Positions 10,695 to 39,896 of a stretch of DNA of 64,000 nucleotides are shown here, piece by piece (the first letter of the stretch is position 1; every line of letters begins with the position of its first letter). The notes beneath the pieces were generated by a model that saw nothing but the letters and a program-made list of their open reading frames with translations, made no database searches and had not been told where the DNA came from. A program made the position numbers and the translations under genes. The DNA is taken from contig NZ_JAKLLH010000001.1 of assembly GCF_023150235.1 (NCBI RefSeq), forward strand, positions 175,456 to 239,455. The letters run 5' to 3'. The stretch is from Azonexus sp. (GTDB taxonomy: Bacteria > Pseudomonadota > Gammaproteobacteria > Burkholderiales > Rhodocyclaceae).

Positions 10695-10755
10695 CTTAGT
10701 GAAGAACAACGTGCGACCGGAAATTTGAACCCGATCGCACACCGTCTCCTTGTTC

Positions 10756-10780
10756 GCCCCCTCTTCTGGGGGCTTTTTTT
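10756..10780 (+). terminator. Terminator after the beta-oxidation cluster
   Basis: GCCCCC (10756-10761) and GGGGGC (10768-10773) pair around TCTTCT and are followed by a run of T. It ends the fad-like operon and lies 3' of the convergent Spy-like gene. Confidence 0.9.
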
Positions 10781-10848
10781 TGCTTGTCGGCCTGCTTGCG
10801 GAATGTGCGGCCTGCGGTCAGCGGCGCATCCTCTGCTTGCCCGAGAAA

Positions 10849-11346: not shown

Positions 11347-11556
11347 GATGCTCTCCTGTCGGTTTGCGGGATTCGCGGGCAGCTACTGCCGCCGTCGAAA
11401 TCATTAAAGCGCAAGCCTGTAATTCAAGTATGTCCGGGAGCGGGCAAGTTGTTGCAGGGTGTTTCCGACGCTTTGGAAACGAGTGATGGATTGGACAAAG
11501 CCATGACTTTGGCGTGAAATAGGCGTTTTGCAGCCGTTATACATGGAGGATGTTTC

Positions 11557-14095: not shown

Positions 14096-17000
14096 ATGAT
14101 CCGCTTTCCCGCCTCTTCCTTGCTGCCCGCATTGCTGGCCTTTGTTCTGGGTTGTGCTGCCAGCGTCGTGGTGGGCCAGCTCGACGCCGAGCGCCTGGCG
14201 TCGGAGGAGCGGAACAAGGTCATCGTCGAGCTGGCCTTGGTGCGCGCCCGGCTTGAAGGCAGCCTGAAGGCAACCTTCAGGTCGACCGACGGGCTGGTGC
14301 ATCTCATCTCCCTGCAGGGGGGCATCGGCGAGGCCTTGTTCAAGGACATGGCGCGCCTGGCGCTTGAAGGCAATCCGCACGTCCGCAACATCACCGTCGC
14401 TCCGGACGACGTGGTTCGCCACGTCTATCCCCTGGCTGGCAACGAACGGGTTCTTGGTTTTGCCTTTGCTTCGCGCCCGGAGCAGATGATTACCGTCCAG
14501 CGCGCCCGCGAGCGGCGCGAACCCTTGCTTGCCGGGCCGCTTGAACTGATCCAGGGCGGTCGGGCGCTGATTCAGCGGGCGCCGGTTTTCGTTCCCGACG
14601 ACAGCGGGGAGCGTTACTGGGGAACAATTTCCATCGTTGCCTACATCGACGGCTTGCTCCAGCCCGGCGGCGAGGCCTTGCCTTCCTCGATCCGGCTGGC
14701 GATTCGCGGCCGCGACGGGCTGGGAGCCGCCGGGGCGGTGGTCGATGGCGATCCGGAGATTTTTTCACTGCAGCCGGTACTCATGGATGTCCCGGTTCCC
14801 GGCGGTACCTGGCAGATCGCCGCCCTGCCGGCAAGGGGCTGGCAGGCAAAGCACTTCCACGTTTCGCCCTATTTTCACGCGGGGATGCTGATCAGCCTGT
14901 TGCTGGCCCTGGTGGCCGGGCTGCGTTCGCGGCATCTGCGTCTTTTCGCCGAGCGCAACGCCGTTCTCGAGCAGGAGATTCGCGAGCGCAAGCGGGTGGA
15001 GGCCGATCTGCGCGATGAGGAAGAACGCTTCCGGGTGCTGTTCGAGCTCTCCCCGGATCCGGCATGGATCATCGAGGGTAACGAATTCGTGGCCTGGAAC
15101 GAGGCCGCCCGCCAGGTTTTCGGACTCTCCGGCGAAACCCGGACCATTCATCCGGCCACGCTCTCGCCCGAGTTCCAGCCCGATGGGCAGTCCTCGCAGG
15201 TCAAGGCCGAATACCTGATCGACGAGGCGCGGCAAAGCGGCGTCAGGCGTTTCGAGTGGATCCATCTGCGCGCCGATGGCTCGCCCTTCACCGCCGAGGT
15301 GACCTTGCTTGCGGTCGGCATGCGCGACCACCAGATCATTCACGCGGCGGTGCGCGACATTTCAAAGCGCAAACAGGCAGAACACGAGTTGCAGGCCAGC
15401 CGCAATCTCCTGCAGGCCCTGGTCGAAAGCGCCGGCGCGGTGATTTACGTCTTCGACCGGGATGAACGTCTCCTGCTCTGCAACCAGCAATTCGAGGAAG
15501 TGCTCGGACAGCCGCGTGAGCGGATGCTGGGCCGGCGGCGCCACGAATTCATGCCGGCGGCGGTGGCGGAACAACACGAGCGCAACGACAGTGCCGTGAT
15601 CGACTCGCATCAGCGTACCAGTTTCGAGGAAATCAACTTCGAGCCGGACGGTGTTCACCATTACCTGACGATCAAATGCCCGGTGTTCAGCGACGGGGAA
15701 ATTCGTGGCGTCGTCGGTATCTCGACCGACATCACCGAGCGCAAGCGCGATGAGGAGCAACTGAAGCTGGCGGGAGCGATCCTGGCCTCGACCTCGGAGG
15801 GCGTGATCATCACCGATGTTTCCGGCGTGATTGTCGCGGTCAACCGTGCTTTTAGCGAAATTACCGGCTACAGCGAAGCCGAAACCCTGGGCCAGAGACC
15901 CAATCTGCTGCGCTCCGAACGGCAGGCACCGGAGTTTTATCGTTCGATGTGGGCCACCCTGAATGAAACCGGCGGCTGGCAAGGAGAAATCTGGAATCGT
16001 CGCAAATCCGGCGAAGCCTATCCACAGTGGATGGCCATCAGCACCATACGCGATAACGAGGGGCAGGTAACGCACTACGTCGGCGTTTTCTCGGACATCT
16101 CCTCGCTGAAACACTCGCAGGAACGGCTGGAACACCTGGCACATTTCGATCCCCTGACCGACCTGCCCAACCGGGTGCTTTTCCAGGACCGCCTGACCCA
16201 CGCCATTGACCGCGCCGCCCGCTATCGCCACGGAATCGCCGTTCTCCTGCTCGATCTCGACGGCTTCAAGAACGTCAACGACAGCCTGGGTCACCCGGTC
16301 GGCGACCAATTGCTCATCCAGGTAGCCAGCCGTCTCAGTGCTTGCGTCCGCGTCGAGGATACCGTTGCCCGCCTGGGAGGCGACGAATTCGCCATCATTC
16401 TCGCCAACATGCGCGATAGCAGCGATGCCATAGAAGTGGTGCGCAAGATTCTCGCCAGTGTCGAGCGTCCCTTCGATCTCGATGGTACTGGCGCCCTGAT
16501 CAGTGCCAGCATCGGCATTGCCGTCTACCCGGCCGATGGCGCCAGCGCCACCGAGCTGGTGCGCAATGCCGACACGGCGATGTACGGCGCCAAGGAAGCC
16601 GGGCGCAATACCTATTGTTTCTACCAGGGCGGCATGACGCAGAAAGCGCAGGAACGCCTGCGCCTCGAAGCGGCGCTCAAGCGCGCCATCGAACATGGCG
16701 AGTTCGAGGTCTGGTTCCAACCGCAGATCGCGCTCGATACGGGAAAAGTCACCGGTGCCGAGGCGCTGCTGCGCTGGCGCGATCCGGAGCGTGGCCTGGT
16801 GCCGCCAATCGACTTCATCCCCCTCGCCGAGCGCACCGGCCTGATCCTGCCGATAGGCGAACTGGTCATGATCGAGGTGGCCCGCCAGGCGCGACGCTGG
16901 CTGGATGCGGGTCTCGATTTTGGCCGACTGGCAATCAACGTCGCCACCCCACAGCTGGAACGCAGCGATTTTGCCGCCCTGCTGCAACGCACCCTGGAAG

Positions 17001-28233: not shown

Positions 28234-28587
28234 TCAGCTTCGTTCATCGGAGGTATCGGCAATAGAACGACTGCCGCCTTGGTGGTGCCGTAATTTTACA
28301 TAATACAAATATTGCGAACGGCATACGTCGGCATCATTGGCCGGCTCAGGGGCGGGCGGGGGTACTGGCGCGGTCGGGTTTTGGGGCTCCACGGTAGCGA
28401 GTTGGGCGCGCTCGACGAACAGCGGCGCCGGGTCGATTTTGAGCAATTTTGCGGCGCGCAAAATCGCGGAATCACTGAGCCGGTGGCGTTTTGTGGCTTG
28501 GCTGTATGCCTGTCGGCTAATGCCGAGGGCGGCGGCAATCGCGGCCGATGTGGGGAATTTATCGGCAAGCAGGGCGAACAGTGTCAT
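28234..28587 (-). CDS. HTH repressor-like protein of the integrated element, truncated by integration
   Basis: N-terminal helix-turn-helix of Cro/CI or YdaS type (FPTSAAIAAALGISRQAYSQ, residues about 11-30) followed by a Pro-rich linker. The frame passes through the left dif-type site: the codons over it give YLYYVK. The last ~19 residues and the stop are encoded by chromosomal DNA outside the element, giving 117 residues. In the circular form the same frame continues into the segment now at 39881-39393, giving a 256-residue protein. It is divergent from the element's rightward genes, with an inverted repeat between them, as expected for a lysogeny-type repressor. Role is inferred from the HTH and position. 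Confidence 0.75.
   Translation of the reverse strand: MTLFALLADKFPTSAAIAAALGISRQAYSQATKRHRLSDSAILRAAKLLKIDPAPLFVERAQLATVEPQNPTAPVPPPAPEPANDADVCRSQYLYYVKLRHHQGGSRSIADTSDERS
28293..28320 (-). other. Left XerC/XerD (dif-type) attachment site
   Basis: Read on the minus strand: XerC arm CGTTCGCAATA, central TTTGTA, XerD arm TTATGTAAAAT. The XerD arm (outer, chromosomal side) is dif-like; the XerC arm (inner, element side) is degenerate (CAATA instead of CATAA). Layout matches the 11+6+11 structure of E. coli dif. Confidence 0.85.
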
Positions 28588-28633
28588 TCCGGATTCCTCT
28601 CAAAAATGGCTGGTTTGTGGGTGCTTCTGCGTG

Positions 28634-28650
28634 GTCAACGCGCGGTTGAC
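28634..28650. promoter_or_regulatory. Candidate operator between repressor and rightward genes
   Basis: GTCAAC (28634-28639) and GTTGAC (28645-28650) form an inverted repeat with a 5-base spacer in the 94-bp divergent gap. It overlaps TTGACG, a possible -35 element. A good -10 is not obvious. Confidence 0.45.
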
Positions 28651-28681
28651 GGATGCGATGACAAGGTTCCTGGGGGTCGTC

Positions 28682-29392
28682 ATGTTGGTTGCTGATTTGC
28701 TGGCAGAGGGCGGATTTGCTCGGGCGGTGCCGTCGGTGCGTGCCGGTGGTGTGGTGGTGTCGCTGGCGTTGCTGCGCGTGGTGTTGCAGATATCGAACGA
28801 GCGGGCCAGGGTTCGTCATAACGATCAAATGGATCAAATGCTGGCCTGGATGGATGAGGCGGGGATTGACCAGTGCGATTTGTGCGTGGATTGGCGGGAG
28901 AGGGTGGCGGCGTTTGCGGATGATTATTTGGTGTCGGATTCGCCTTGTGAGGTGGCGTTTTCAGAGCATCGCGATTGGTATTTGCCGATTCAGCACGCTG
29001 ATTGCATGACTTATGCCGGTCGGCCTTTGTGGTCGGTGTGGCGCGATGACGCGGGCGGGCCGTTGGATGCGCCGGATTGGATCGCGGCGGGGGGGGTGTG
29101 TGAGGAGGCAGGCGAGATTGAGCAGTTGGTTTTGCGGCGCGGTGAGTGCGATTCTGCTGCGAGGGAGGCGGCGTTTGGAGTTTGCGCGCCGGCTATTTGG
29201 CGGGATTTGTCGGGGCGCGTGGTGATGATTACTGCGCTGTCGCAAGAGGCAAGATGGTTAAGAGAGGGCTTTTGTGAAGTGGTGATTGATGCGCCGGATT
29301 ATATGCCGGCGGGCTCAATGCTTGCGTTTCAATCGGGCAAAGAGGTGTGCGCGTCAGATCGGCGGTTTTTTCGTGATGGGTGGCTTTCATGA
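28682..29392 (+). CDS. Element protein of unknown function, first rightward gene
   Basis: A 236-residue protein with an apolar N-terminus (RAGGVVVSLALLRVVLQI) and many Cys and Trp residues later (CDLCVDW, YLPIQHADCM, GGVCEEAGE, GECDS, FGVCAP). GGGGG ends just upstream of ATG 28682. An in-frame start to 28337 exists but crosses the divergent repressor gene. It overlaps the next gene at ATGA. No family recognised. Confidence 0.65.
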   Translation: MLVADLLAEGGFARAVPSVRAGGVVVSLALLRVVLQISNERARVRHNDQMDQMLAWMDEAGIDQCDLCVDWRERVAAFADDYLVSDSPCEVAFSEHRDWYLPIQHADCMTYAGRPLWSVWRDDAGGPLDAPDWIAAGGVCEEAGEIEQLVLRRGECDSAAREAAFGVCAPAIWRDLSGRVVMITALSQEARWLREGFCEVVIDAPDYMPAGSMLAFQSGKEVCASDRRFFRDGWLS

Positions 29393-29991
29393 ATCCATAT
29401 CGTATCGAGGGGCCGGCGACTACTTCGTTTTCCGGTGGGCGGGCCAGGGTGGCAGCGCTGTTTGTGAGGCGCGATTCGATTTGCAAAAAAATTGATGGTG
29501 TCGAATGTTTCGACATAGACAGAGACGCAAGAAATTTTTTGGGCGGGATTCCGGTGGTGGCGCATCCGCCGTGTCGTGCTTGGGGGCAGTTGCGGCATAT
29601 GGCGAAACCAAGGGCGGACGAGAAAGAGTTAGCGATATTTGCAGTCGATATCGTTAGGCGGTGCGGCGGTGTTTTGGAGCATCCAGAACGGTCTAGTTTG
29701 TGGCCAGTTGCAGGGTTGCCGGATGGCGAAGAAGTTGATTGCTTTGGCGGTTTTTCGTTGGTGGTTGACCAATATTGGTGGGGGCATAGGGCAAGAAAAA
29801 GGACGAAGTTCTACATTGTTGGGTGCGATAGGTCGGAGGTTACGAACATTCCTCTTGTGCTTGGGGGAGCGGAATATGTGGTTGGTTCGTCATCTTCTGG
29901 CAAGCCGGAAATAACAAAGAGGGAGAGGGAGGAGACGCCGGTAGGGCTAGCGTTGTGGTTGGTTGATTTGGCTGCGCGGTGTCGAAAATGA
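29389..29991 (+). CDS. Protein with cytosine-methylase-like PPC motif
   Basis: A 200-residue protein with IPVVAHPPCRAWGQLRH, resembling the catalytic PPC loop of C5-cytosine methyltransferases, then VDIVRRCGGVLEHPERSSLW. Proteins of this kind are common in phages and are annotated as methylase-like; the SAM-binding glycine motif of true methylases is not evident here, so activity is doubtful. It overlaps its neighbours on both sides by 4 bases (ATGA). A role in protection from restriction is only a guess. Confidence 0.55.
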   Translation: MNPYRIEGPATTSFSGGRARVAALFVRRDSICKKIDGVECFDIDRDARNFLGGIPVVAHPPCRAWGQLRHMAKPRADEKELAIFAVDIVRRCGGVLEHPERSSLWPVAGLPDGEEVDCFGGFSLVVDQYWWGHRARKRTKFYIVGCDRSEVTNIPLVLGGAEYVVGSSSSGKPEITKREREETPVGLALWLVDLAARCRK

Positions 29992-30236
29992 CGCCGGGTG
30001 AGTGTTTGAAGCAAATGCGTGAAGTGTTGGGTGCTGAGCGTGACCCGATGTTGTTGGTGTGGGCCGAGCAGGCGACGACGAAGGATCGCCGTTTGCTGCT
30101 GGCGATGGCGGGGGAGCCACCGGGGAGTGCTCGCATTTTGGCGGGCCGGGCTTGGCTGGATTTGTCGCCTGAGTTGCGGGCTCGGGTTAAGGGCGGATTG
30201 CGGCGGTTTTCGGCCTGGGCGGGGCGATTGCAATGA
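29988..30236 (+). CDS. Small hypothetical element protein
   Basis: An 82-residue basic protein (WAEQATTKDRRLLLAMAGEP; LRARVKGGLRRFSAWAGRL). It starts inside the previous stop (ATGA) and overlaps the next gene by 4 bases. No domain recognised. Confidence 0.6.
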   Translation: MTPGECLKQMREVLGAERDPMLLVWAEQATTKDRRLLLAMAGEPPGSARILAGRAWLDLSPELRARVKGGLRRFSAWAGRLQ

Positions 30237-30451
30237 ATGCCAGCGGCTTTTTAGGCGAGTTGTCGGCCTTGGTGGGTAAGTGTGCCAGTTGTCGGCATGC
30301 GGCGGCGGCTGGGGATGGGCGGGCTCGGGCGTCGTTGGTGTGCATGCGCGAGCATCGGGGCGACTGGCGGGGGGCTGTCGAGGCGGGGGAATTTGTCCGT
30401 CCTGGGTGGTCGTGCAACGCTTATGACTATGAGCCGGGGTCTTTGGCGTGA
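30233..30451 (+). CDS. Small Cys-containing element protein
   Basis: A 72-residue protein with KCASCRHA, VCMREHRG and WSCNAYDYEPGS. The spacing of four Cys with His suggests a small zinc-binding module. It overlaps the replication gene start at GTGA. Function unknown. Confidence 0.6.
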   Translation: MNASGFLGELSALVGKCASCRHAAAAGDGRARASLVCMREHRGDWRGAVEAGEFVRPGWSCNAYDYEPGSLA

Positions 30452-32280
30452 AGGGGTCGTTGCGTGATTGGGCGCCGAAGGCGGCGGCGATTGATCGGGC
30501 TGAGGCGCTACGGCAGGCGGCGTGGGTTGATCGCCAGGTGTGTGATATGCCGCAGCGTGAGGCGGCTCGGGTATTGGCTGCGCATCGGCGGGGGGGCGGT
30601 GTTGAGTCGGCGGCGGCGAATCGTTTGCTGTTGTTGGAATCTGAGATTGCGGCAGTGCTGCGATTGTTGCCGGATCGGTGGGCGGGGCATTTGCGCGGCG
30701 AGTTGCGGCGGGCTGGCGGCGTGGGTAATGCGGTCGCGGTGGGTCGGGTGTTGTCGACCGGTGAGGAGGCGGGCGGGCGTTTGTCGCTGGGGGCGTCTGA
30801 CGAGGAGATAAGGGCGGCGGCAAAGGAGGCTGCGGAAGAGGCGGCGGCGTTGGTGTCGGTGGCTCCGGGTGGTGGGCTGGCGGCGGCTCGGTGGTTGCTG
30901 GCGAAGCATTGCGCCAAGTGGGGGGTTGAGGCGCCGGATTGTCGCGATGATGGGCCGGCGGTGCGGCGGATGTTGTGTGCTCGTTGGTATTTGCGGCGGC
31001 TGCGTCGGGCGCATGTGCGGCGGGCTGAGGGGGTGGCGATTCGTGCAGGCTTGGTGCGTCGTGGTTTGTGGATTTATTCATCTCAAGATGCGGTGGAGCG
31101 GCGGCAGGCGCAGCGGGCGCGTAATGCTTTGGCGATTGATCGGGCGTCAGTGTGCTGTTTGGAGACTGGCGAGGATATAGATTTGGCGGGGGTGGTCGCG
31201 GCGTCGGTGGCTAATCCTGAAGTGAAGCGGGCTGAGTTGATGACGCGGGTAAAGGGGTGTGATGCGGTCGCGGCTGACCGGGGGTGTGCGTGCGAATTTT
31301 GGACGCTGACGGCGCCGGGTCGAATGCACGCGCAGCGGATTGTCGGCGGGGTTGCGGTGGTGAATGATCGATTTGACGGCACGACTCCGAAAGAGGCGCA
31401 GGCGTATTTGTCCAAGGTGTGGGCTCGGGCTCGGGCTGCATGGAAGCGGCGGGGGCTTGAGGTCTTCGGCTTGCGCACGGCTGAGCCGCATCATGACGGT
31501 ACGCCGCATTGGCATTTGATCGCTTATGGCCGGCGTCGGGAGTTGCGTTTTGCACGGCGGTTGTTGCGGGTGTATGCCTTGCGTGAGGCGCCGGACGAGG
31601 AGGGGGCTCGGGAGCATCGTTTTAAGGTATTGGAAGCTCGGGCGGGTACGCGGGGGGCTGCGTATGCGGCAAAGTACGTTAGCAAAAATATCGACGGCAA
31701 GGGGTTGGATGGTCAGATTGATGCGGAAGGGGAGCGGAAAATTTCCGCCAGCGTGCGGCGCGTGGATGCCTGGGCGGCGGCTTGGGGGATTCGCCAATTC
31801 CAGTTTTTTGGTACGCCGGCGATTACGGCTTGGCGTGTGTTGCGGCGGATGCGCTCTCCGGTTGCTTTGCCGGGGTCGGCGTTGGAGCGGGCGAGGGTGG
31901 CGGCGGATGATGGGGATTTTGCCGAGTTTTGGCGGGCGTGCGAGGCTGGTCCGATAGCCATTAGCTATCGCTCAGTTGATCGGGAAACGGCGTATGGGGA
32001 CCCGGCGCAGCCAAAGGTGGTCGGCGTGGAAGAGGGCGGGCGGCGCGCTGAACTGCCGGAAAAGACCTGGGTGATTTCGTGGGCCGGGGTAAAGACCCGG
32101 CTTGATGAAACGATTTTTAAGGTTTTTTCGGCCGTTGACCGTGGAAAATCGGCGACGATGCCGGGGGGTTTTGGGTTTCCTCGGTCTTGTGTCAATAACT
32201 GTACGGGGTCGGGTGATTTTTCGTCGGCGGTGGTCGGGGCGCTCGGCGCGGATGATTTTTCGCGATGGTGGCCGGGGTAA
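30448..32280 (+). CDS. Rolling-circle replication endonuclease, P2 gpA-like (HUH)
   Basis: A 610-residue replication initiator of the HUH endonuclease superfamily. Motif I is FWTLTAPGRMH; motif II is HHDGTPHWHL with the metal-binding H354-W-H356; motif III is YAAKYVSKN with paired tyrosines Y406 and Y410, the YxxxY arrangement of phiX174 gpA and P2 gpA. It would nick one strand at the origin, bind its 5' end and drive rolling-circle synthesis. The GTG start overlaps the previous stop. Codons strongly favour G or T in third position. It is the key evidence for a replicating phage or satellite. Confidence 0.9.
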   Translation: MKGSLRDWAPKAAAIDRAEALRQAAWVDRQVCDMPQREAARVLAAHRRGGGVESAAANRLLLLESEIAAVLRLLPDRWAGHLRGELRRAGGVGNAVAVGRVLSTGEEAGGRLSLGASDEEIRAAAKEAAEEAAALVSVAPGGGLAAARWLLAKHCAKWGVEAPDCRDDGPAVRRMLCARWYLRRLRRAHVRRAEGVAIRAGLVRRGLWIYSSQDAVERRQAQRARNALAIDRASVCCLETGEDIDLAGVVAASVANPEVKRAELMTRVKGCDAVAADRGCACEFWTLTAPGRMHAQRIVGGVAVVNDRFDGTTPKEAQAYLSKVWARARAAWKRRGLEVFGLRTAEPHHDGTPHWHLIAYGRRRELRFARRLLRVYALREAPDEEGAREHRFKVLEARAGTRGAAYAAKYVSKNIDGKGLDGQIDAEGERKISASVRRVDAWAAAWGIRQFQFFGTPAITAWRVLRRMRSPVALPGSALERARVAADDGDFAEFWRACEAGPIAISYRSVDRETAYGDPAQPKVVGVEEGGRRAELPEKTWVISWAGVKTRLDETIFKVFSAVDRGKSATMPGGFGFPRSCVNNCTGSGDFSSAVVGALGADDFSRWWPG

Positions 32281-32399
32281 TTTCAGGCAAGTTTCACAAA
32301 TTTTCTTGCATGTCCAATTGATTTTGGCTATCGTCGCGTCAATAGCTTTTGGCTATTGGTTTGATTTTTTCGATAACTTTGTTTTGGGGGTGTAAAAAA

Positions 32400-32987
32400 A
32401 TGGGTACTGGCGCTGGTGAAACTGGGGGTGGTGGTGGTGTGGGCGGCGCGGATAACCGTCGCACGGTCCGCGATTTGGCGGGCATCTACCGGCTGGCAAA
32501 GGAGGCGAATCCGGGCATTGCCCCGGTCTTCCAGGTCGCGTCCGTTGGTTCGGATCGCTCGCTGAAGTTCGTGGGCTCGGTCGAGATTGAGGGGGTCACT
32601 TACGTTCCGGCGGGTGATACAGGCAAGGTCAAGTCGTTTGCCGATGTGGATGCCTTCGTTGCCTACATGTCGAAGTGCTGCGAAGCCAGTGATGGCGTTT
32701 ATCAGGTTTCGGTGAATACGGCGTCAATCTTGGCGTCGAAAGTGCCGAATGACATGAAGGCATGGGCGGCGTCGCAAATCGTCAGCCTCAGCCAGAAGCG
32801 CACGGGGCAGGTGGCCGTGGTCAATACGATCGATCAGCAGTTGTCGCTCATGATCGGCTGGGAAGCGGGTAATCAGGCGCAGCGCGCAAAGAAGGCAGAA
32901 GTCGAGGCGCAGCGCGCTTGCGTCCAGGCCGACATTGCGGCAATTGATGCTGAAGTGACTCGACTGACCGCCATTGCCAATGCCTGA
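32400..32987 (+). CDS. Element protein of unknown function, possible abundant virion protein
   Basis: A 195-residue protein with a Gly-rich N-terminus, a middle part (VFQVASVGSDRSLKFVGSVEIEGV split by turns) and a C-terminal helical, coiled-coil-like stretch (QAQRAKKAEVEAQRA... VTRLTAIANA). GGGGGTG lies 7 bases ahead of ATG 32400. Its codons use C far more than neighbouring genes, as expected for a highly expressed gene, and it has its own leader after a 119-bp gap. A structural role is inference. An upstream TTG extension would add a signal-like segment but the ribosome site favours the ATG. Confidence 0.6.
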   Translation: MGTGAGETGGGGGVGGADNRRTVRDLAGIYRLAKEANPGIAPVFQVASVGSDRSLKFVGSVEIEGVTYVPAGDTGKVKSFADVDAFVAYMSKCCEASDGVYQVSVNTASILASKVPNDMKAWAASQIVSLSQKRTGQVAVVNTIDQQLSLMIGWEAGNQAQRAKKAEVEAQRACVQADIAAIDAEVTRLTAIANA

Positions 32988-33162
32988 TAGCGGCTTGGTC
33001 TTCCAGGTGCTGGCTGCGCTGGTCGCGGCTGGCGCGGTGTATGGCGGTATTCGTTCGGATATCCGCCATATCCATCAGCAGTTGGAGCACTTGGGGCGTG
33101 CGGCGGATAGTGCGCATGCGCGCATCGACCGAATCAGCGAAGGGCGGCGCGGCGATGTTTGA
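32980..33162 (+). CDS. Small membrane protein, holin- or spanin-like
   Basis: A 60-residue protein with one N-terminal membrane helix (LVFQVLAALVAAGAVYGGI) and a polar helical tail (IRHIHQQLEHLGRAAD). It overlaps the genes on both sides and directly precedes the lysozyme, as lysis accessory genes do. Function is inferred from position. Confidence 0.6.
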   Translation: MPDSGLVFQVLAALVAAGAVYGGIRSDIRHIHQQLEHLGRAADSAHARIDRISEGRRGDV

Positions 33163-33619
33163 CGACGTGATTGATCTGGCAGCTGTCACGGTCATTGATT
33201 TTGAGGGGCTGAAGTTAGCCCCTTATTTGTGTCCGGCGGGAAAGTTGACCGTGGGTGTCGGGCATGTCATTCGGCGTGGTGAATCGGCGCTGAAGAGTGG
33301 GGTCACGAGGCAGCAGGCGGTTGAGCTGTTGCATGCTGATTTGCAGGTCGCATTGGATGATGTGAGGCGGGGTTTGCCGGCGGAATGTTCTGCGCGGCTG
33401 ACGGTCGGGCAGTGGGCGGCGTTGGTGTCGTTCGTGTTCAACGTTGGCGGGCCTGCGTGGCGTTCGTCGACATTGCGGTGTCGAGTGGTGGCCGGTGACG
33501 ATGCGGCGGCGGCAGCTGAGTTCGGGCGATGGGTCAAGGCAGGCGGCAAGGTGTTGCCGGGTTTGGTCAAGCGGCGGGCGCGTGAGTCCGCTATTTACCT
33601 AGGGGAGTGGAAGCAATGA
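33155..33619 (+). CDS. Phage lysozyme (GH24 endolysin)
   Basis: Peptidoglycan-cleaving endolysin of 154 residues. The catalytic signature is E17-(8)-C26-(5)-T32 (FEGLKLAPYLCP, then KLTVGVGH), the E-C-T variant of the usual E-D-T triad. FNVGGPAWRSSTL and GLVKRRARESAIYL complete the family pattern. No signal peptide is present, so it needs a holin; the adjacent small membrane proteins are candidates. It overlaps both neighbours. Confidence 0.88.
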   Translation: MFDDVIDLAAVTVIDFEGLKLAPYLCPAGKLTVGVGHVIRRGESALKSGVTRQQAVELLHADLQVALDDVRRGLPAECSARLTVGQWAALVSFVFNVGGPAWRSSTLRCRVVAGDDAAAAAEFGRWVKAGGKVLPGLVKRRARESAIYLGEWKQ

Positions 33620-33786
33620 AGTTCTTGAAATGGATGGGTGCCAGGGCTGGCGAGGCGTCGACGTGGCGTGGCCTGGGGCTGTTCCTGGCTGCAATGGGTA
33701 TTTTGCCGGCGGACGCGGTTGAGCCGTTGATTGCCGCTGGGGTTGCGATTGCCGGCGCGGTGGATATCGTGCGTCGGGAGGATTGA
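33616..33786 (+). CDS. Small membrane protein, holin candidate
   Basis: A 56-residue protein starting MKFLKWMGARAGEAS, with two hydrophobic stretches (GLGLFLAAMGILPA and VEPLIAAGVAIAGAVDIV). The ATG overlaps the lysozyme stop (ATGA). Two membrane segments next to an endolysin suggest a class II holin; this is inference. Confidence 0.6.
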   Translation: MKFLKWMGARAGEASTWRGLGLFLAAMGILPADAVEPLIAAGVAIAGAVDIVRRED

Positions 33787-33788
33787 CC

Positions 33789-34205
33789 GTGACGCCGGTG
33801 GTTCGGCATCGAAAGCGGGTGATGGCGTTGGATTTCCCGGCGCCGGATGCGGCTTTGGTGCAGCCTTCTGATTGGAATGATGATCATGAGGTTGTTTGTG
33901 CGGCTGGGCGGGTTGAGTTGTGGGTGCTGCCGGGGGAGCTGCCGGCGGGCTGGTTGCAGTGTTTGGGGCAAGTGGTTCGCAAGGCGGATTTCCCGGAACT
34001 CTACGGGGCAATCGGCGGTGCCTTTGGCGAAAGCGGCGCCTATTTCGCGCTCCCGAACATCAAATTGATGGTTGGAACGGGTGTCGTCAAAGCAACGATG
34101 ACGCGGGCGGTGCTGGAAGAGGATGAAAGCGGGGCGCGAGTCGTCGGGGTCGATGCGGCGGCGGGGTCTTGGTTGGCGCGTTACGTCATTTCTACGGGGC
34201 GGTGA
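33789..34205 (+). CDS. Tail-collar-domain-like protein
   Basis: A 138-residue protein from GTG 33789 (TTG 33783 is an alternative that overlaps the previous stop). The segment LPAGWLQCLGQVVRKADFPE followed by LYGAIGGAFGESGAYFALPN matches the phage tail collar domain, found at the ends of fibres that touch the host surface. Its presence suggests that the element makes, or once made, a receptor-binding virion part. Confidence 0.65.
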   Translation: MTPVVRHRKRVMALDFPAPDAALVQPSDWNDDHEVVCAAGRVELWVLPGELPAGWLQCLGQVVRKADFPELYGAIGGAFGESGAYFALPNIKLMVGTGVVKATMTRAVLEEDESGARVVGVDAAAGSWLARYVISTGR

Positions 34206-34687
34206 TGCAAGGGGGGTTCGCGGCCTGGGCGTTTGCGCCGGGGGCGTTTGCTACGGCTTGGGCGCAACGTCCGGCGGCGACGGCTTTGCCTCCTGGCTGG
34301 ATGGCGGCAGAGCTGGGGGCGGCGGGCTACATTGGGCCGGTGTCGGCTGCGCTTGCTCTGGCTCGGGGTGAGGCGCACGAATACCATGACGGCGAGTTGC
34401 GGGTGGGCGGTCGTGTCTTGATCGGGCCGGCGGGTAAGGTCTATGCCTTCCAGTCGCCTGGATCGGCTGCGCGATGGGTCGAGCTGAACAGGGGGCGACC
34501 ACTAAAGGAATGGGCATTGATTGCCGGTTTGGTGCCGGGTTCGGCTGAGGTTGCCAAAAGTCGAAAGCGGGCGGCGTTGACCGCAATCGCGGCGCGTGTG
34601 GTGGCGGCGGCGGGTCGCTGCAAGGACGCGGGCCGGGCGGCGGGCTTGATTGCTGAGTCGGATTGGTGCTTGCGGAAATGGGAATGA
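34205..34687 (+). CDS. Element protein of unknown function, downstream of collar-like gene
   Basis: A 160-residue, Ala/Gly-rich protein; the start overlaps the collar-like stop (TGATG). A central part (YHDGELRVGGRVLIGPAGKVY) could be beta-rich and the C-terminus is basic and helical. Position suggests a fibre or fibre-assembly partner. No family recognised. Confidence 0.55.
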   Translation: MQGGFAAWAFAPGAFATAWAQRPAATALPPGWMAAELGAAGYIGPVSAALALARGEAHEYHDGELRVGGRVLIGPAGKVYAFQSPGSAARWVELNRGRPLKEWALIAGLVPGSAEVAKSRKRAALTAIAARVVAAAGRCKDAGRAAGLIAESDWCLRKWE

Positions 34688-34855
34688 AGCGTGGTCGAGC
34701 TGGCGCGGTTGGGCTGGCCAGGCGCGGTCGTTTGTACGGCTGGTGCGGCTGGTGTGATTGGGAGTGAGTGCTGTATGGCTATGGCGATCTGGTCTGGGCC
34801 GCGATATGGGCGCGGCTGTGTTCGGGTGGGGGTTTTTGGGGATGGGGGTGGGGCG

Positions 34856-35008
34856 ATGAAAATACCAGTGGCGCAAAAGCCGCGTTACGGGCGCGGAAAC
34901 TTGGCGGCGGCTCAACGTGCACTGTCGCAGGGTGACATTCTCGAGGTGGTCAGGCGCATCAATGCGCATGCCTTTAACCGGCAAAAAACAGGGAGCGGGA
35001 AAAAATGA
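34856..35008 (+). CDS. Small basic element protein
   Basis: A 50-residue, Lys/Arg-rich protein (VAQKPRYGRGNLAAAQRALS). GGGGTGGGG precedes ATG 34856 and the stop overlaps the next gene (ATGA). A GTG at 34691 would extend it through low-complexity DNA and is less likely. Possibly nucleic-acid binding. Confidence 0.5.
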   Translation: MKIPVAQKPRYGRGNLAAAQRALSQGDILEVVRRINAHAFNRQKTGSGKK

Positions 35009-35601
35009 GTCTGAATCTCAACGTTTTGCGTTGCACCATCTTTGCGCTGGGCGGGAAGATGTTTCAATTTCTGGCCAATGGCGGGGATTGGAAGGATGTG
35101 ACGGTTACGGTTCGGGCGCAATATTCCGGCGCACGGCTGCGTTGCACGGCCACGGTTCATTTTCCAGTCGTGATCCATGGGGGCGGGGAGCCGTGGGAGC
35201 CCTACGACTGGGAAATTTCCGATTTCGCGGGCCGGGTGCGTGTCTGGAATGATCTCGGCGCGTTGATTGCCAAGTTGCGGGCTGCATTGGCCCATCCTGG
35301 GGGCGAAATCACGGTGCGGATTCTGTTTGAAAATATCCGCGTGCCGGCCATTGGTGACGTGGCAGAAGTGGCCAGAAAACGCGATGTTACGCTGCGCAAG
35401 ATTCAGAACCAGGCGCAGTTGGCGATGTCGAGGGCGGGGGCTTACATGACCTTGATGGAAGGAATGCAGCCGTGGTCGGTCGTGGAGCAGGCGCGTTACG
35501 ATGATTTGCTGATGATTGCAAAATCAGCGGGCGAGGATGATACGGAAGCGTATCGTCAGCTGGCAAAGTTGCCGATTGTGTCGCTGCGGCCAGATTATTG
35601 A
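35005..35601 (+). CDS. Hypothetical element protein
   Basis: A 198-residue protein. The N-terminal half has alternating polar/apolar stretches (VTVTVRAQYSGARLRCTATVHFPVV) that suggest beta-structure; the C-terminal half is helical (DVAEVARKRDVTLRKIQNQ). It begins at ATGA overlap and is followed by a terminator, so it closes the first operon. No family recognised. Confidence 0.6.
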   Translation: MSLNLNVLRCTIFALGGKMFQFLANGGDWKDVTVTVRAQYSGARLRCTATVHFPVVIHGGGEPWEPYDWEISDFAGRVRVWNDLGALIAKLRAALAHPGGEITVRILFENIRVPAIGDVAEVARKRDVTLRKIQNQAQLAMSRAGAYMTLMEGMQPWSVVEQARYDDLLMIAKSAGEDDTEAYRQLAKLPIVSLRPDY

Positions 35602-35628
35602 GGCAGTGGGCGGGCGATTTGATAATTC

Positions 35629-35656
35629 CGGGCGGCGCGTGCTGCCCGTTTTTTTG
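35629..35656 (+). terminator. Terminator closing the first rightward operon
   Basis: CGGGCGGC (35629-35636) pairs with GCTGCCCG (35641-35648) around GCGT, one G-T pair, followed by eight or so T. Confidence 0.85.
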
Positions 35657-35670
35657 GGGGGCTGGATTAT

Positions 35671-36633
35671 ATGGCGGACATGATAGATGTACGGTATGGG
35701 TACGATGAGGGAACGGCGCCAATTGGCATTGGTCGATATGTGGCTAATGCTCATTTGAATTGCGGCGAGGATGTGGATAAATACTATATCGACGAACAGG
35801 GAATATTGCGGAACGGGAATCGGGCGGATGGTGAGGTGACCTTTGAAAAATTTGATTGGGTTGCCACAGGGGATTGGAAACGTCTTAAATATGGGGAAGA
35901 TACAAGTGTCAGGCCGTCGAATCTTGTTAAAGAAAAATCAGCGCATGTGTGGCTTGTTTCTTTCCCTGGGGTTACTGTCCGTGAATACTATGATAATTGC
36001 CGAATAATATCTTCCAATAGCAGCGGATGGCAGGTGGGTTGGACTCATTATGGAGTTAGCGTAGGCGGTATAAAGGTTGTTTCGCCGTCTGGGAAGCCCA
36101 TGAAGTGGCGGGACGGGGAGCCTCGGGGGGGAAGAAATAAATGGCTGAAAACCGTTGTGGCGCGTGAACTGGCATGGTGGCGCAAATACGACGAGGGGAA
36201 CATAAAAGAAAAGCACGCGATGTTCATGAAGTTGGATTTGACCGTAAAGGTCATGCGTAAATATTTTTTTCCGAAAATGGGGGTGTCTGCCATATTGTCG
36301 TGGGATCGCTATGGCGTACAAAGGGAGCGATGGCTGATGCAGGCATTATTCAACGCAGCGGAACGCAGTATGAGAAGGCAGGGTAGGTTGTATCCGTATA
36401 CATTACTTTGGGGGGCGCTCGAAATAGAAGTTAAGGAGAGTTTTTGGCTACCGGAATGTACGGGGGGGTGGGAAAATAGGATTCATTTGGATTTGATTAT
36501 GAGGAAAAAATCGGATTGGTTTGAAGAGCAGCATTCGGAAGCCTTTGAGAGGTATATCAATAGAAAATGGTGCGATGGGCAAATTCTTGAAATGAGTCAC
36601 GACGACGTTTGGGGTACTGGTATCATGAAATAG
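35671..36633 (+). CDS. Independently transcribed accessory gene (moron candidate)
   Basis: A 320-residue Trp- and Tyr-rich protein (VWLVSFPGVTVREYYDN, GWQVGWTHYGVSVGGI, KWLKTVVARELAWWRKYDE). No family is recognised. Base composition is visibly more AT-rich than the flanking element genes and lacks their G/T third-position bias. It is bracketed by its own terminators (35629 and 36735), starts after GGGGGG, and sits alone. This is the pattern of a moron, a later-added gene often active in the lysogen, for example in defence or host fitness. Function unknown. Confidence 0.65.
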   Translation: MADMIDVRYGYDEGTAPIGIGRYVANAHLNCGEDVDKYYIDEQGILRNGNRADGEVTFEKFDWVATGDWKRLKYGEDTSVRPSNLVKEKSAHVWLVSFPGVTVREYYDNCRIISSNSSGWQVGWTHYGVSVGGIKVVSPSGKPMKWRDGEPRGGRNKWLKTVVARELAWWRKYDEGNIKEKHAMFMKLDLTVKVMRKYFFPKMGVSAILSWDRYGVQRERWLMQALFNAAERSMRRQGRLYPYTLLWGALEIEVKESFWLPECTGGWENRIHLDLIMRKKSDWFEEQHSEAFERYINRKWCDGQILEMSHDDVWGTGIMK

Positions 36634-36663
36634 TCGCCTGGGGCTTCGGTTTTTTGGGGTGGT

Positions 36664-36699
36664 GTGATTTCGGTGGTTGTAGGGCGTGATTTCGGTGGT
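36664..36699. repeat. Two direct 14-bp repeats with 22-bp period
   Basis: GTGATTTCGGTGGT occurs at 36664-36677 and 36686-36699, two helical turns apart, in a 462-bp non-coding interval (36634-37095). Likely repeated protein-binding sites. Confidence 0.7.
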
Positions 36700-36734
36700 C
36701 ACGAATAGTTTTTTTCGGTTATCGTTATTTTTCA

Positions 36735-36758
36735 GGCAGCGGGCGCTGCCTTTTTTTT
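36735..36758 (+). terminator. Terminator after the moron candidate
   Basis: GGCAGC (36735-36740) and GCTGCC (36745-36750) around GGGC, then eight T. Confidence 0.85.
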
Positions 36759-36936
36759 CGTTTGTCGCCTGGGGTAGTGCTTCAAATTTCCGTAGCGGGC
36801 GAAAGTTTCCGGGCATTGCTTCAAAAAGATCGGATGGGGTCTTGTTTTGTGTCTGTAGTGGGGCGGGGTGAAGGCAAAAAACGTGTTTTTCGGGTCACTT
36901 GCTCAAACCATTGTCCGCGTAGGAAAAAACGGCCTG

Positions 36937-37026
36937 AAAAAACGTTACACCTAATCGACCCGGAAAAATATCGAAAAAAGCCGTGAAAAAAGCGTGTTTT
37001 TTCGCCAATTAGGTGTAACGTTTTTT
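36937..37026. repeat. Large inverted repeat with 19-bp perfect arms
   Basis: AAAAAACGTTACACCTAAT (36937-36955) is repeated in reverse complement at 37008-37026. The 52 bases between hold a further GAAAAAA/TTTTTTC hairpin. It is the strongest secondary structure in the element and lies just before the second operon. It could be a replication origin, packaging signal or regulatory site. Confidence 0.8.
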
Positions 37027-37095
37027 CGGCGGCAAGCTGGAATTTTTTTTAAAAACGGGAAATAATCTTGCTGCATTATTCGGTGAGGTAAAAAA

Positions 37096-37860
37096 ATGGC
37101 AGGTTCGAGGGAATTGGCTGCATCGTTGGCGTTTCTTGATGCCGTAGCGGATGAAATGGGGGAGGGGAGTCTATCGCCGGTGGTTGAGAAAGAATCGGTG
37201 GCTGCGCTGGCTCGTGTTGCGGCTTTGATAGAGCCGGTAATGCAGTCCGCTTTGGGTGCGTATCTGGAAAAGTGCGAATTGCAGCATGTGAGACTGCATT
37301 CTGACCGGCCTTTTTCGGATGAATCCTTATCCGGGGCTTTGTCGCAGCTGCTGGGGGTGCCGGTGGCGTCAATCAAGGATCGTGCGGCGCTGAAAATGTC
37401 GTTTCGGGCGGCGGTGCAAAATCAGGTCAGTATTGCGGCTGGCTATCCGTTTGAAAACATCTACGACAAGAAGCTGTTATTCCGCGATGTGCTGCGGGCG
37501 ACGGGGCAGCGGTCGTCACGTCTGGTGCCAGGTTTGGAGCTGCGGGATTTGTCGAGCAAGGAAATCACCAAAGAGGATTTCATTCTTTATGGCCAGCGAA
37601 TGTTGTCCGATTTGACGGGGGTGAATTTCACCAATTTGCGCGACAAGCAAGCGATCAAGGAAGACGTTTACGCCTATGTGATGCCGATTATTCGGGCTGA
37701 AATTACCGGGGAAGTGATGGTGACTGGATACAAGCGTCCGTTACGCATGGATCGGAAGAGCGTGAGGAATCGGGAGCGGCAGCGGCGATTCCGGGCGCAG
37801 CGGGGAAATCGGGATAAATATGTAGGCGTGCGGGCGAGGGAAGAAGGCTATGGCGGATGA
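37096..37860 (+). CDS. Repeat protein A of the element (four ~29-residue repeats)
   Basis: A 254-residue protein with four copies of an 18-residue motif, G-h-x-h-x-x-h-x-D-x-x-x-h-K-x-D-h-h, starting at G87, G116, G146 and G175, so a 29-30-residue period. Examples are GYPFENIYDKKLLFRDVL and GVNFTNLRDKQAIKEDVY. The C-terminus is very basic (RNRERQRRFRAQRGNRDKY). GAGG lies upstream of the ATG. It overlaps the next gene, a paralogue, by 11 bases. No known family is recognised; a basic tail suggests DNA contact or packaging. Confidence 0.7.
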   Translation: MAGSRELAASLAFLDAVADEMGEGSLSPVVEKESVAALARVAALIEPVMQSALGAYLEKCELQHVRLHSDRPFSDESLSGALSQLLGVPVASIKDRAALKMSFRAAVQNQVSIAAGYPFENIYDKKLLFRDVLRATGQRSSRLVPGLELRDLSSKEITKEDFILYGQRMLSDLTGVNFTNLRDKQAIKEDVYAYVMPIIRAEITGEVMVTGYKRPLRMDRKSVRNRERQRRFRAQRGNRDKYVGVRAREEGYGG

Positions 37861-38632
37861 GGATTTGAAGGTCCGCATTCTGTCGGCGGTGGCGTCGACA
37901 AATGCGGGCGTGCGGCGTATCCAGTTGCAGGCAAACCCGCTGCGCCATGTGGCGGATAGCATCGGCTTTGGCGAGTCTTACCGGCGGCTTCAGGGGCTTA
38001 CTGACTCGTCGCGGTATGACTTCGCGGCGGCTCGGGTGGTTGCCGATTATGCCCGTGCGCAGTTGTCGGCTCGGGTGGGTTTGGAGATTGAGGAAATTTC
38101 AGAAGCTGGGCTAGCGAGGGCTATTGGCAAGCGGGCCGGGTTTGATCTTAATTCCCTGTCGGACGTTGAGCAGATCAAGCGGGATTTGCTGATTGCGGCG
38201 GTGATCTTCATGGCGTCGCGTTTGGGCTGGGTGGTCGAGGAAGCAATCGATACGGTTGAAAAGCTGGCGCGGCTGCTGGAACGCAAGGTGGCTGCGTATC
38301 TGGAAGGGCGGTTCAAGGGATTGCAATTGCATGATCTTTTTGACCCGGAACAGACCAAAAAAGATGTGCTGCGGTATGTCTGCCTGTTGATCCGAATGAA
38401 GACCGGGATCAATGTGCGAAATGTTGATGACATTGACGCCTTCAAGAAAGAACTGCTAGATTGGGCGGACGCGGAAGTAAGGCGGCGGCTCGGGATCAGG
38501 GGAACGGGCGGCGGCTTGCGCATGACGGCGGCAGCAATCAGAAGTCGGCGGGCGCAGCGCGTTTTTTATGCCAAGCATGGCAATCTGAAAATTTATCAAC
38601 CTGTCGGCCAGCAAGACGCGCTTCCGCCTTGA
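37850..38632 (+). CDS. Repeat protein B of the element, paralogue of A
   Basis: A 260-residue protein with the same motif at G97, G126, G157 and G186 (period 29-31) and a shorter related segment at G77. Examples are GFDLNSLSDVEQIKRDLL, GLQLHDLFDPEQTKKDVL and GINVRNVDDIDAFKKELL. The C-terminal basic block RSRRAQRVFYAKHGNLKIY matches that of protein A in place and pattern. The pair probably arose by duplication. Function unknown. Confidence 0.7.
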   Translation: MADEDLKVRILSAVASTNAGVRRIQLQANPLRHVADSIGFGESYRRLQGLTDSSRYDFAAARVVADYARAQLSARVGLEIEEISEAGLARAIGKRAGFDLNSLSDVEQIKRDLLIAAVIFMASRLGWVVEEAIDTVEKLARLLERKVAAYLEGRFKGLQLHDLFDPEQTKKDVLRYVCLLIRMKTGINVRNVDDIDAFKKELLDWADAEVRRRLGIRGTGGGLRMTAAAIRSRRAQRVFYAKHGNLKIYQPVGQQDALPP

Positions 38633-38666
38633 TCGGGGCGGTTTCCTGGTCAGAGAAAGGGCGGCA

Positions 38667-39044
38667 ATGACAATCTTGTTTTGGTTGGGCTTCCTCCTGG
38701 CTGCGGCGGTGGCATCGGTCGTGATGGGCCGAATGGCCGTGATGTTGTTTGAGCCCGTGGATGGTCGCTTTGGCGCCGTGGGCTCGGCGTTGCAACTGCT
38801 GGCGATGTGTGCCATTGCGGCCAGTGTCTGGATCGGCGTGGCGGCGGTTGCTGGCCTGGGGATCGTCTATCTGCCGGCTGCGCTCAGGCTTTGCGCCATG
38901 CTCTTGGTGCTGGGTGGCATTGCGTTGCAGTTCGGCGGATTCGTTGGCGCCTGGGGGTTTGCCATGCTCCTGGCTGCGGCAGTCTGCGCGGCGGGCCTGT
39001 TCGCGTTCTGGATCATGGGCGGGCGTCGAAAATGCGCGGCTTGA
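38667..39044 (+). CDS. Multi-pass membrane protein of the element
   Basis: A 125-residue, very hydrophobic protein with four predicted membrane helices (ILFWLGFLLAAAVASVVMG; LLAMCAIAASVWIGVAAVAG; LCAMLLVLGGIALQFGGFVG; AMLLAAAVCAAGLFAFWIMGG). It starts 35 bases after repeat protein B. Such a protein could serve a membrane-containing virion, lysis or superinfection exclusion; the sequence does not decide. Confidence 0.65.
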   Translation: MTILFWLGFLLAAAVASVVMGRMAVMLFEPVDGRFGAVGSALQLLAMCAIAASVWIGVAAVAGLGIVYLPAALRLCAMLLVLGGIALQFGGFVGAWGFAMLLAAAVCAAGLFAFWIMGGRRKCAA

Positions 39045-39247
39045 TCTTCATGGCCATGCTGGCGCTGGCGCTGGCCACACAAGCGGCGCCGGCCAAAAAA
39101 GCAGCCAGGTCGCGGCCTGTCGGCGGCATCGCTTACACTCAACCGCGACCGGTGGTAAGTTGCGCGTGCGTCGACGGCGCCTATTGTGTCGGGCCGCGTG
39201 GCGGGCGATTCTGCATCAATGGCAGCGGTCGAAAACGCTATTTTTGA
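39032..39247 (+). CDS. Small secreted Cys-containing protein of the element
   Basis: A 71-residue protein with a signal peptide (MRGLIFMAMLALALATQAA) and a short mature part holding four Cys (VVSCACVDGAYCVGPRGGRFC), probably two disulfides. It overlaps the upstream gene by 13 bases and ends the second operon. Function unknown; a small periplasmic or secreted factor is likely. Confidence 0.6.
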   Translation: MRGLIFMAMLALALATQAAPAKKAARSRPVGGIAYTQPRPVVSCACVDGAYCVGPRGGRFCINGSGRKRYF

Positions 39248-39264
39248 GACTGGTCAGGCAGTCG

Positions 39265-39300
39265 ATGAAAACGGGAGTCCTTCGGGGCTCCCGTTTTCAT
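39265..39300. terminator. Bidirectional terminator
   Basis: ATGAAAACGGGAG (39265-39277) and CTCCCGTTTTCAT (39288-39300) are exact complements; the A and T ends serve both strands. It separates the rightward operon from the leftward gene fragment. Confidence 0.9.
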
Positions 39301-39392
39301 TTGGGCCGGCGCCGGCTGGCCAGGTGTGGTCGAGCTGGCCGGGCGCGGCTGGCGGCTATCGATAAGTTCTATTTATCCGTCGATCAAAATAT

Positions 39393-39782
39393 CTATTTTG
39401 CGGATTTCCGTTTGCGCGCTAGTGTTGATGCGCTCTCGGTTGCGGCTTTGGCTGGGGTCTTGGTGCTTTTTTTGGCCTTGATTTCAGGGGTGCGCAGGGG
39501 TTTTCGTGGGTAAAGGGCTTTGAAGCGTTCGTATTCTTCAAGCGCAGCCGGTACGAAGCGTATCCACGAGGGATCGAAAGGTGGGCAGTCTGCCACGGCT
39601 TCATCAAACCATCCTTCGGCTTTCGCCAGTGCGATTTTTTCGGGGACAACCCATCGGCTGACGTACTGAGCAAAGCGAGGCGAGTCCGCGCTTATGCGTG
39701 CTACGGCAAGAGTCCATCGGATCAAATCGATAGCGTCGCGATGTTTTGCATATGTTGGATGCAGGTGTAATTGAGCAATCAC
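39393..39782 (-). pseudogene. Separated C-terminal part of the element's repressor-like gene
   Basis: Minus-strand frame ending in a Lys/Arg/Ala-rich tail (KAKKSTKTPAKAATESAS). Its frame is open through the right dif-type site (NLYYVK) and, in the circular element, joins the HTH gene at 28587 in the same frame (site offset 11,576 bases, consistent with the frame change between the two coordinates). In the integrated state it lacks the HTH part. A GTG at 39782 could start a 129-residue stand-alone product (MIAQLHLHPTYAKHRD), but its ribosome site is weak. The domain (YVSRWVVPEKIALAKAEGWF) is not recognised. Confidence 0.65.
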
Positions 39783-39868
39783 GTTGGTTTCTTCGTTTTT
39801 TTGAGGGCTTTGATTATGTCGGAAAAGTTTTTCTTGGGCGCCGTCGGTCGGTTCTTTTTGGGGCTTCG

Positions 39869-39896
39869 GCTTTACATAATACAAATTATGCGAACT
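39869..39896 (-). other. Right XerC/XerD (dif-type) attachment site
   Basis: Read on the minus strand: XerC arm AGTTCGCATAA, central TTTGTA, XerD arm TTATGTAAAGC. The outer XerC arm is a textbook dif half. Joined to the outer XerD arm of the left site (TTATGTAAAAT) it restores a clean chromosomal dif. Confidence 0.9.

What the first reader, a model, noticed from the sequence alone, without database searches (positions are those of the whole stretch)
28234..39782. attP lies inside the repressor gene: integration would switch protein form
On the minus strand the HTH gene (start 28587) reads through the left att site, and the fragment ending at 39393 reads through the right att site in the matching frame (YLYYVK and NLYYVK). 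The offset of 11,576 bases preserves the frame, so the circular form encodes one 256-residue protein. Integration replaces its 163-codon C-terminal part with 19 chromosomal residues. This is the logic of integration-dependent immunity known in some mycobacteriophages, where removal of a C-terminal tag stabilises the repressor, but here driven by XerCD at dif. I know of no described case of this with dif.
Basis: partly seen in the sequence, partly recalled or inferred. Interest (0 to 1): 0.95.

Follow-up and report, generated by a model that had tools for sequence, protein, structure and literature searches.

The report
dif attP splits a two-domain repressor
A small virus-like element inserts at the host's chromosome-resolution site (dif) through a spot in the middle of its own regulator gene, so insertion cuts off the second half of the regulator; relatives hold the two halves as one gene, and many of them carry a degradation-tag-like ending, which suggests that insertion turns a short-lived protein into a stable one.

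Summary
Two dif-like att copies, 11,576 bp apart, are each read in the same frame by an HTH ORF (left) and a C-half ORF (right). All five Rhodocyclaceae elements in which I found both halves are in frame, and the dif polarity differs between them. A viral contig (L089) carries two uninterrupted HTH+C-domain genes, so the fused protein occurs naturally. Two C-halves have no ATG/GTG/TTG before their domain and a stop in the dif arm.
The C-half is a conserved, confidently predicted helical domain without a known fold match. Seven of nine C-halves of this type end in Ala-Ala (background 14 of 445 ORFs), like the host ssrA tag ANDESFALAA. The window's own copy ends SAK: an exception. A palindrome, GTCAAC-N5-STTGAC, lies only upstream of these HTH genes among 128 loci.
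New here are the whole-domain swap, attP in an interdomain linker, ssrA-like ends and a non-filamentous element. Repression, proteolysis and immunity are untested.

The parts
28295..28587 (-). HTH half of the regulator (ATG 28587; GAGAGGAAT upstream), running into the left att through a Pro-rich linker
   Evidence: ORF; HTH_3 E 0.003, below the Pfam cut-off; phrog_7241 5.7e-5, phrog_638 1.6e-4
28234..28294 (-). host-encoded tail of the prophage form (19 residues after LYYVK) and stop
28295..28319 (+). left att copy; the element-side XerC-type arm is degenerate (GTTCGCAATAT)
   Evidence: arm names recalled
39871..39895 (+). right att copy; complete dif word
39393..39870 (-). C-terminal half: linker, conserved helical domain, low-confidence tail ending KSAK
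   Evidence: four homologs 46-57% identical; AF2 block pLDDT 95-97 over residues 21-90 of the 39396-39785 construct; no fold match at E 0.001
28634..28650 (.). operator-like palindrome GTCAAC-N5-GTTGAC upstream of the HTH gene
   Evidence: only match in the window; 0.09 expected at up to 1 mismatch, 9 of 100 shuffles had one; among 128 loci only upstream of related HTH genes
30448..32280 (+). replication initiator, Phage_GPA
   Evidence: PF05840 1.9e-66; phrog_91 3.5e-133
33041..33619 (+). phage lysozyme
   Evidence: PF00959 7.5e-34
33783..34205 (+). tail-collar-domain protein
   Evidence: PF07484 1.5e-10
37096..38632 (+). pair of related proteins of unknown function, with relatives in other elements
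   Evidence: AF2 mean pLDDT only 63.7
28295..39895 (.). integrated element between the two att copies

Best explanation
An element that appears to use host Xer/dif recombination keeps attP in the linker of a two-domain regulator gene. In the circle one ORF makes HTH-linker-C-domain. Integration at dif leaves the HTH half with its own start and a short host-encoded tail, and strands the C-domain at the other end, in two relatives without a usable start. Most likely this is an integration-dependent lysogeny switch: the circular form is unstable (ssrA-like Ala-Ala end in most relatives) and/or modified by its C-domain, and the prophage form is the stable repressor of the divergent early genes. 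Shown by sequence: att copies, shared frame, natural fused genes, purifying selection on both domains, C-terminal Ala-Ala enrichment, operator-like palindrome. Inferred: XerCD catalysis, proteolysis by ClpXP, repression, immunity, and that all this applies to the window's own copy, which lacks the Ala-Ala end.
For: In frame in 5 of 5 elements with both halves, in both dif polarities. Two uninterrupted fused genes in L089, 230 codons from the Met before the HTH, no indels between them; omega HTH 0.32, linker 0.67, C-domain 0.14. C-halves of L008 and L009: no ATG/GTG/TTG before the domain and a TAA in the dif arm. Ala-Ala ends in 7 of 9 C-halves of this type versus 14 of 445 mechanical ORFs or 13 of 331 longer ATG ORFs; by divergent tail groups 4 of 6, p 1.4e-5; versus 0 of 8 other C-domain ORFs, Fisher p 0.002. 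Tails are 0-20% identical between groups. Host tmRNA tag ANDESFALAA; the terminal Ala-Ala is the most important ClpXP element (PMC7652416 passages). None of 5 prophage forms ends in AA. The palindrome lies only upstream of these HTH genes. Precedent: BPs repressor (PMC4557955 passages).
Against: The window's C-half ends KSAK and L010's KKAM. Two of the 8 'other' C-domain ORFs (L081, L030) are also open through an att-like site and do not end AA; moved to the first class the contrast weakens (7 of 10 versus 0 of 7, p 0.0098; 7 of 11 versus 0 of 6, p 0.035). The C-domain is too conserved to be a mere tag and is a separate gene in other elements. Met codons precede the domain in L028, L010 and both L089 copies, and a GTG in the window, so a separate C-domain product is possible there. 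L028 and L057 lack the palindrome. L089 is a tandem array, not a proven free circle. No expression, binding, stability or immunity data.
Confidence: 0.5

Rival explanations
1. The C-domain is the effector. The full-length or C-domain protein acts only in the circle (anti-repressor, or control of replication or Xer recombination), and integration is a way to switch it off; the truncated HTH matters little.
For: C-domain omega 0.14 versus 0.32 for the HTH. It also occurs as a separate co-oriented gene: in the terminally redundant viral contig L111 directly after an HTH gene, and in G534 across the att from an HTH gene, so circle-only expression may be the older design.
Against: Ala-Ala ends were seen only on C-halves of the fused type. 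A specific palindrome points to an HTH function at the early promoter.
Confidence: 0.25
2. Two separate genes that only happen to be open across attP: HTH and C-domain are translated independently and no fused protein matters.
For: Separate genes in L111 and G534; Met codons before the domain in L028, L010 and L089.
Against: No start in L008 and L009; 7 of 9 modules in which I saw both parts are one frame (window, L011, L028, L056/L008, L057/L009, two in L089 against G534 and L111); Ala-Ala ends.
Confidence: 0.15
3. Hitchhiking: the gene end is simply where attP fell; truncation is tolerated and has no regulatory role.
For: Prophage tails are not conserved, 11 to 136 residues; some relatives are remnants (L009, L081).
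Against: Recurrence in phiRSS0 and XacF1, where a 5' deletion of ORF12 made the integrated state unstable (PMC5666396); frame kept in both dif polarities.
Confidence: 0.1

Closest known systems
Integration-dependent immunity of mycobacteriophage BPs (gp33-136 / gp33-103)
   Same: attP inside the repressor ORF; integration shortens the C-terminus; ssrA-like C-terminus on the circular form (here in 7 of 9 C-halves of this type, not in the window's)
   Different: BPs encodes its own integrase and loses 33 residues; here dif is used, no integrase was recognised, a whole domain is lost, and there are no functional data
Ralstonia filamentous phage phiRSS0 ORF13
   Same: dif attP inside an HTH gene, truncated on integration; a two-form hypothesis with immunity by the truncated form is already in print
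   Different: Inovirus; only 26 residues lost (156 to 130)
Xanthomonas filamentous phage XacF1 / Cf1c ORF12
   Same: dif attP inside an HTH regulator (phrog_638) that is split by integration; a second small gene, ORF11, follows
   Different: Inovirus; ORF11 is DUF3653-like (E 4.5e-4, just below the Pfam cut-off) with no detectable similarity to our C-domain
Jorvik (dif-type corticovirus-like phage)
   Same: Small non-filamentous element, dif-type attP, P15-like HTH repressor
   Different: In Jorvik a non-coding stretch separates attP from the HTH gene gp1 (PMC10589892 passages)
SSV-type integrase partition; Tn916 circle-dependent transcription (both recalled, not looked up)
   Same: Integration splits a gene or transcript that is whole only in the circle
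   Different: Other genes, other recombinases

Membership tests
BPs-type integration-dependent immunity | attP inside the repressor ORF, truncated by integration | tested here: met
   that the HTH protein is a repressor is inferred
BPs-type integration-dependent immunity | ssrA-like C-terminus on the circular form | tested here: inconclusive
   7 of 9 C-halves of this type end AA; the window's own does not
BPs-type integration-dependent immunity | phage-encoded integrase next to the repressor | tested here: not met
   no integrase among the 16 window ORFs scanned in one or more libraries; smaller ORFs were not scanned; att is dif-like
BPs-type integration-dependent immunity | short form represses the early promoter and gives immunity | not testable with these tools
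   only an operator-like palindrome
phiRSS0/XacF1-type dif prophages | dif attP inside an HTH gene | tested here: met
phiRSS0/XacF1-type dif prophages | HTH of the phrog_638 type | tested here: inconclusive
   window 1.6e-4 versus XacF1 ORF12 4.9e-43
phiRSS0/XacF1-type dif prophages | filamentous phage gene set (Zot, coat) | tested here: not met
   GPA Rep, lysozyme and collar; no Zot match among the 16 window ORFs scanned
Xer-using mobile elements | flanked by dif copies at the host dif | tested here: met
   the only two dif-like sites of the genome flank the element
Xer-using mobile elements | integration catalysed by host XerC/XerD | not testable with these tools
   -
Corticovirus-like (Vinavirales) phages | double-jelly-roll capsid protein and packaging ATPase | tested here: inconclusive
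   none recognised by sequence among the 16 window ORFs scanned; L111, which carries the C-domain, has a phrog_8536 major head protein

The most novel reading that the evidence does not exclude
A XerCD/dif element independently evolved the mycobacteriophage-type integration-dependent switch: attP was placed in the linker of a two-domain repressor so that host dif recombination removes both an ssrA-like degron and a second, circle-only effector domain. One cut would stabilise the repressor and silence the effector at once. Unfused HTH and C-domain gene pairs in other dif viruses could be the ancestral stage.
Probability: 0.4. Interest if true: 0.8.

Novelty: new variant of a known kind. Interest (0 to 1): 0.6.

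Why it matters
If true, host XerCD, whose normal job is chromosome dimer resolution, also sets the lysogeny state of its parasite by trimming the repressor, and a degron-controlled integration switch would have arisen outside actinobacteriophages. It gives a comparative set (fused, unfused, both dif polarities) and a named strain, Dechloromonas denitrificans ATCC BAA-841 (its C-half ends RLAA), in which to test the 2013 hypothesis on phiRSS0.

Tried and rejected
Viral-contig scans with single window proteins and with the first C-half alignment found no relative; A3 brought only the contig of L028; phages and plasmids had none. The Rep alignment then brought L089, and A8 brought L111. The phiSHP2 hit (E 1) was rejected: that gene resembles XacF1 ORF11, which is no detectable relative of the C-domain. 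Structure matches to PDB and BFVD: none at E 0.001. DUF3701 (E 0.061, 1 of 9 members) not used. The idea that g37096 is a capsid protein got no support (low-confidence helical model). Flank genes of the window were not found in 20 fetched dif regions of the genus, so no syntenic empty site was shown; the perfect dif word of G013 stands in for it. An HTH search in G757, G211, G004 and G084 found nothing.

Rows set aside or weak: L010 (contig edge, no att seen) and G757 (att in frame in the window's polarity, upstream reads N, no HTH found) count among the 9 C-termini, not among the 5 frame pairs. L031 is an exception in which the C-domain reads toward dif. At the far end of G211's element I saw no HTH gene. 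L008/L056 lie on two contigs of one genome; L009/L057 lie 43 kb apart with foreign genes between and could be two remnants. In L111 the att is presumptive: a search with up to 7 mismatches found no dif-like site, and I rely by eye on an 11-nt arm-like stretch (TATTATGTAAA) inside the HTH ORF. In G534 the second att copy has 5 mismatches in 24. L045, L088 and L110 are one contig, the same element as L028; L109 repeats L089. The AA background is made of mechanical ORFs and is rough.
Full report
What is there. The window lies in a 3.4-Mb genome of 50 contigs, in a genus that includes Dechloromonas denitrificans ATCC BAA-841. Two dif-like sites, the only ones in that genome at up to 3 mismatches, flank an 11.6-kb element with a Phage_GPA replication initiator, a lysozyme and a tail-collar protein. 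No capsid, terminase or integrase was recognised by sequence among the 16 window ORFs scanned, so it may be a small virus or a satellite.

The split gene. The HTH ORF and the C-half ORF cross their att copies in the same frame. Matches to the C-half were found in 5 of 76 genomes of the genus, 8 of 297 and 8 of 395 of the family and 7 of 399 of the order, the window's genome included. Where both halves were found (window, L011, L028, L056/L008, L057/L009) all 5 are in frame. The dif polarity relative to the gene is opposite in the window and in the other four; G757 has the window's polarity and frame, but its HTH half was not seen. In all five the element's arm on the HTH side is degenerate and its arm on the C-half side is close to the host's.

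Natural fused genes. Contig L089 (IMG/VR, 15.7 kb) looks like a tandem array of this element type. It has two uninterrupted ORFs (273 and 356 aa from their first starts) that read HTH, linker with the att core (TTNYAR), C-domain. From the Met before the HTH they are 230 codons each without an indel; omega is 0.32 (HTH), 0.67 (linker) and 0.14 (C-domain). A tandem array is not a proven free circle, but it shows the junction gene whole. In L008 and L009 a TAA in the dif arm precedes the C-half and no ATG, GTG or TTG occurs before the conserved domain, so an ordinary start cannot make it in the prophage. The window has a GTG (weak GAAGAA upstream), L011 two TTG and L028 an ATG, so there a separate product is possible.

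The second part. The C-domain is predicted as a helical domain (pLDDT 95-97 over residues 21-90) with no fold match and only weak to moderate hits to a PHROG of unknown function (phrog_10187, best 1.6e-10). Elsewhere it is a separate gene just inside att: L079/L084, where an HTH gene stops about 20 bp before a partial second att; L029 and L083. In L111, a 9.1-kb terminally redundant viral contig with a phrog_8536 major head protein, an HTH ORF is followed by a C-domain gene with its own Shine-Dalgarno-like stretch; the att there is presumptive. L031 is an exception. So of 9 modules in which I saw both parts, 7 are fused and 2 are adjacent genes. The common order is HTH, (presumed) attP, C-domain, in one direction.

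Degron-like ends. Seven of 9 C-halves of this type end in Ala-Ala, three of them RLAA. Background: 14 of 445 mechanical ORFs of at least 90 aa, or 13 of 331 ATG ORFs of at least 150 aa. The naive p is 1e-9; counting the sequences as 6 tail groups, 4 of 6 gives 1.4e-5. The rest of the tails is 0-20% identical between groups, 30-50% within the L011/L008/L009 group, and the Ala codons differ synonymously. None of 8 other C-domain ORFs ends in AA. Two of those, L081 and L030, are open through an att-like site; counted with the first class the contrast weakens to p 0.0098 or 0.035. None of 5 prophage forms ends in AA. The host tmRNA tag is ANDESFALAA, and ANDERFALAA in G118. [quoted passage not shown] Against: the window copy ends KSAK and L010 ends KKAM.

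Operator. GTCAAC-N5-GTTGAC occurs once in the window, upstream of the HTH gene. With S at one position it occurs, among 128 fetched loci, in 8 loci and there only upstream of these HTH genes: window, L011, L056 and both L089 copies, the rest being duplicate loci of the same places. L028, whose recognition helix looks different by eye, and L057 lack it. This supports, but does not show, autoregulation and control of the early genes.

Literature. Searches. BPs (PMC4557955, passages) is the model. For dif, phiRSS0 ORF13 (PMC3816273, section 7 read, other passages) and XacF1 ORF12 (PMC4076744 passages; PMC5666396 abstract and passages) already have attP inside an HTH regulator, with a printed hypothesis that the truncated form stabilises the prophage and gives immunity, and with an ORF12 5' deletion that destabilises the prophage. 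Thus the concept with dif is not new. In those listings I saw no report of a whole-domain swap, of a linker attP, or of ssrA-like ends with dif; most subscription papers are not in the library.

Verdict. The architecture is well supported for the family; the switch mechanism is about an even bet, and weaker for the window copy than for its relatives.

Noticed in passing
L028 904-16193: Array at dif: a window-type element followed by an apparent inovirus (Zot-like ORF 9901-11232, recognised by eye) whose own HTH (phrog_638) ends inside dif.
   Followed up: partly
L111 1-9242: Terminally redundant 9.1-kb viral contig with a phrog_8536 head protein and a phrog_2666 packaging match, carrying an HTH gene followed by the C-domain gene.
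   Followed up: partly
L008 ~2930-2955, L009 ~8907-8930, L011 ~11528-11550: Hairpin plus eight T on the antisense strand just inside att on the C-half side: an intrinsic-terminator-like site inside the coding linker, clear in 3 of the 5 looked at.
   Followed up: partly
window 36936-37027: Perfect 20-nt inverted repeat with a 52-nt loop upstream of the 37096 gene.
   Followed up: no
L086 148-986 (XacF1): phrog_34897 (279 positions) matches ORF12 and ORF11 in its two halves, so an inovirus fusion across this attP region may exist.
   Followed up: no
window 39032-39247; L060 6983-7291: Small protein with a CVGPRGGxFCI motif at the element's right end (NF007464 E 6e-7, below its cut-off); a similar ORF abuts dif in another genome of the genus.
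   Followed up: no
L009/L032/L057 (G042 440872-484350): Related element apparently interrupted by about 30 kb that includes metal-resistance-like genes (by eye).
   Followed up: no
window 28295-28319, L011 2056-2080, L028 880-904, L056 14638-14662, L057 ~14328-14353: The element's degenerate dif arm lies on the HTH side in all five, in both dif polarities.
   Followed up: partly
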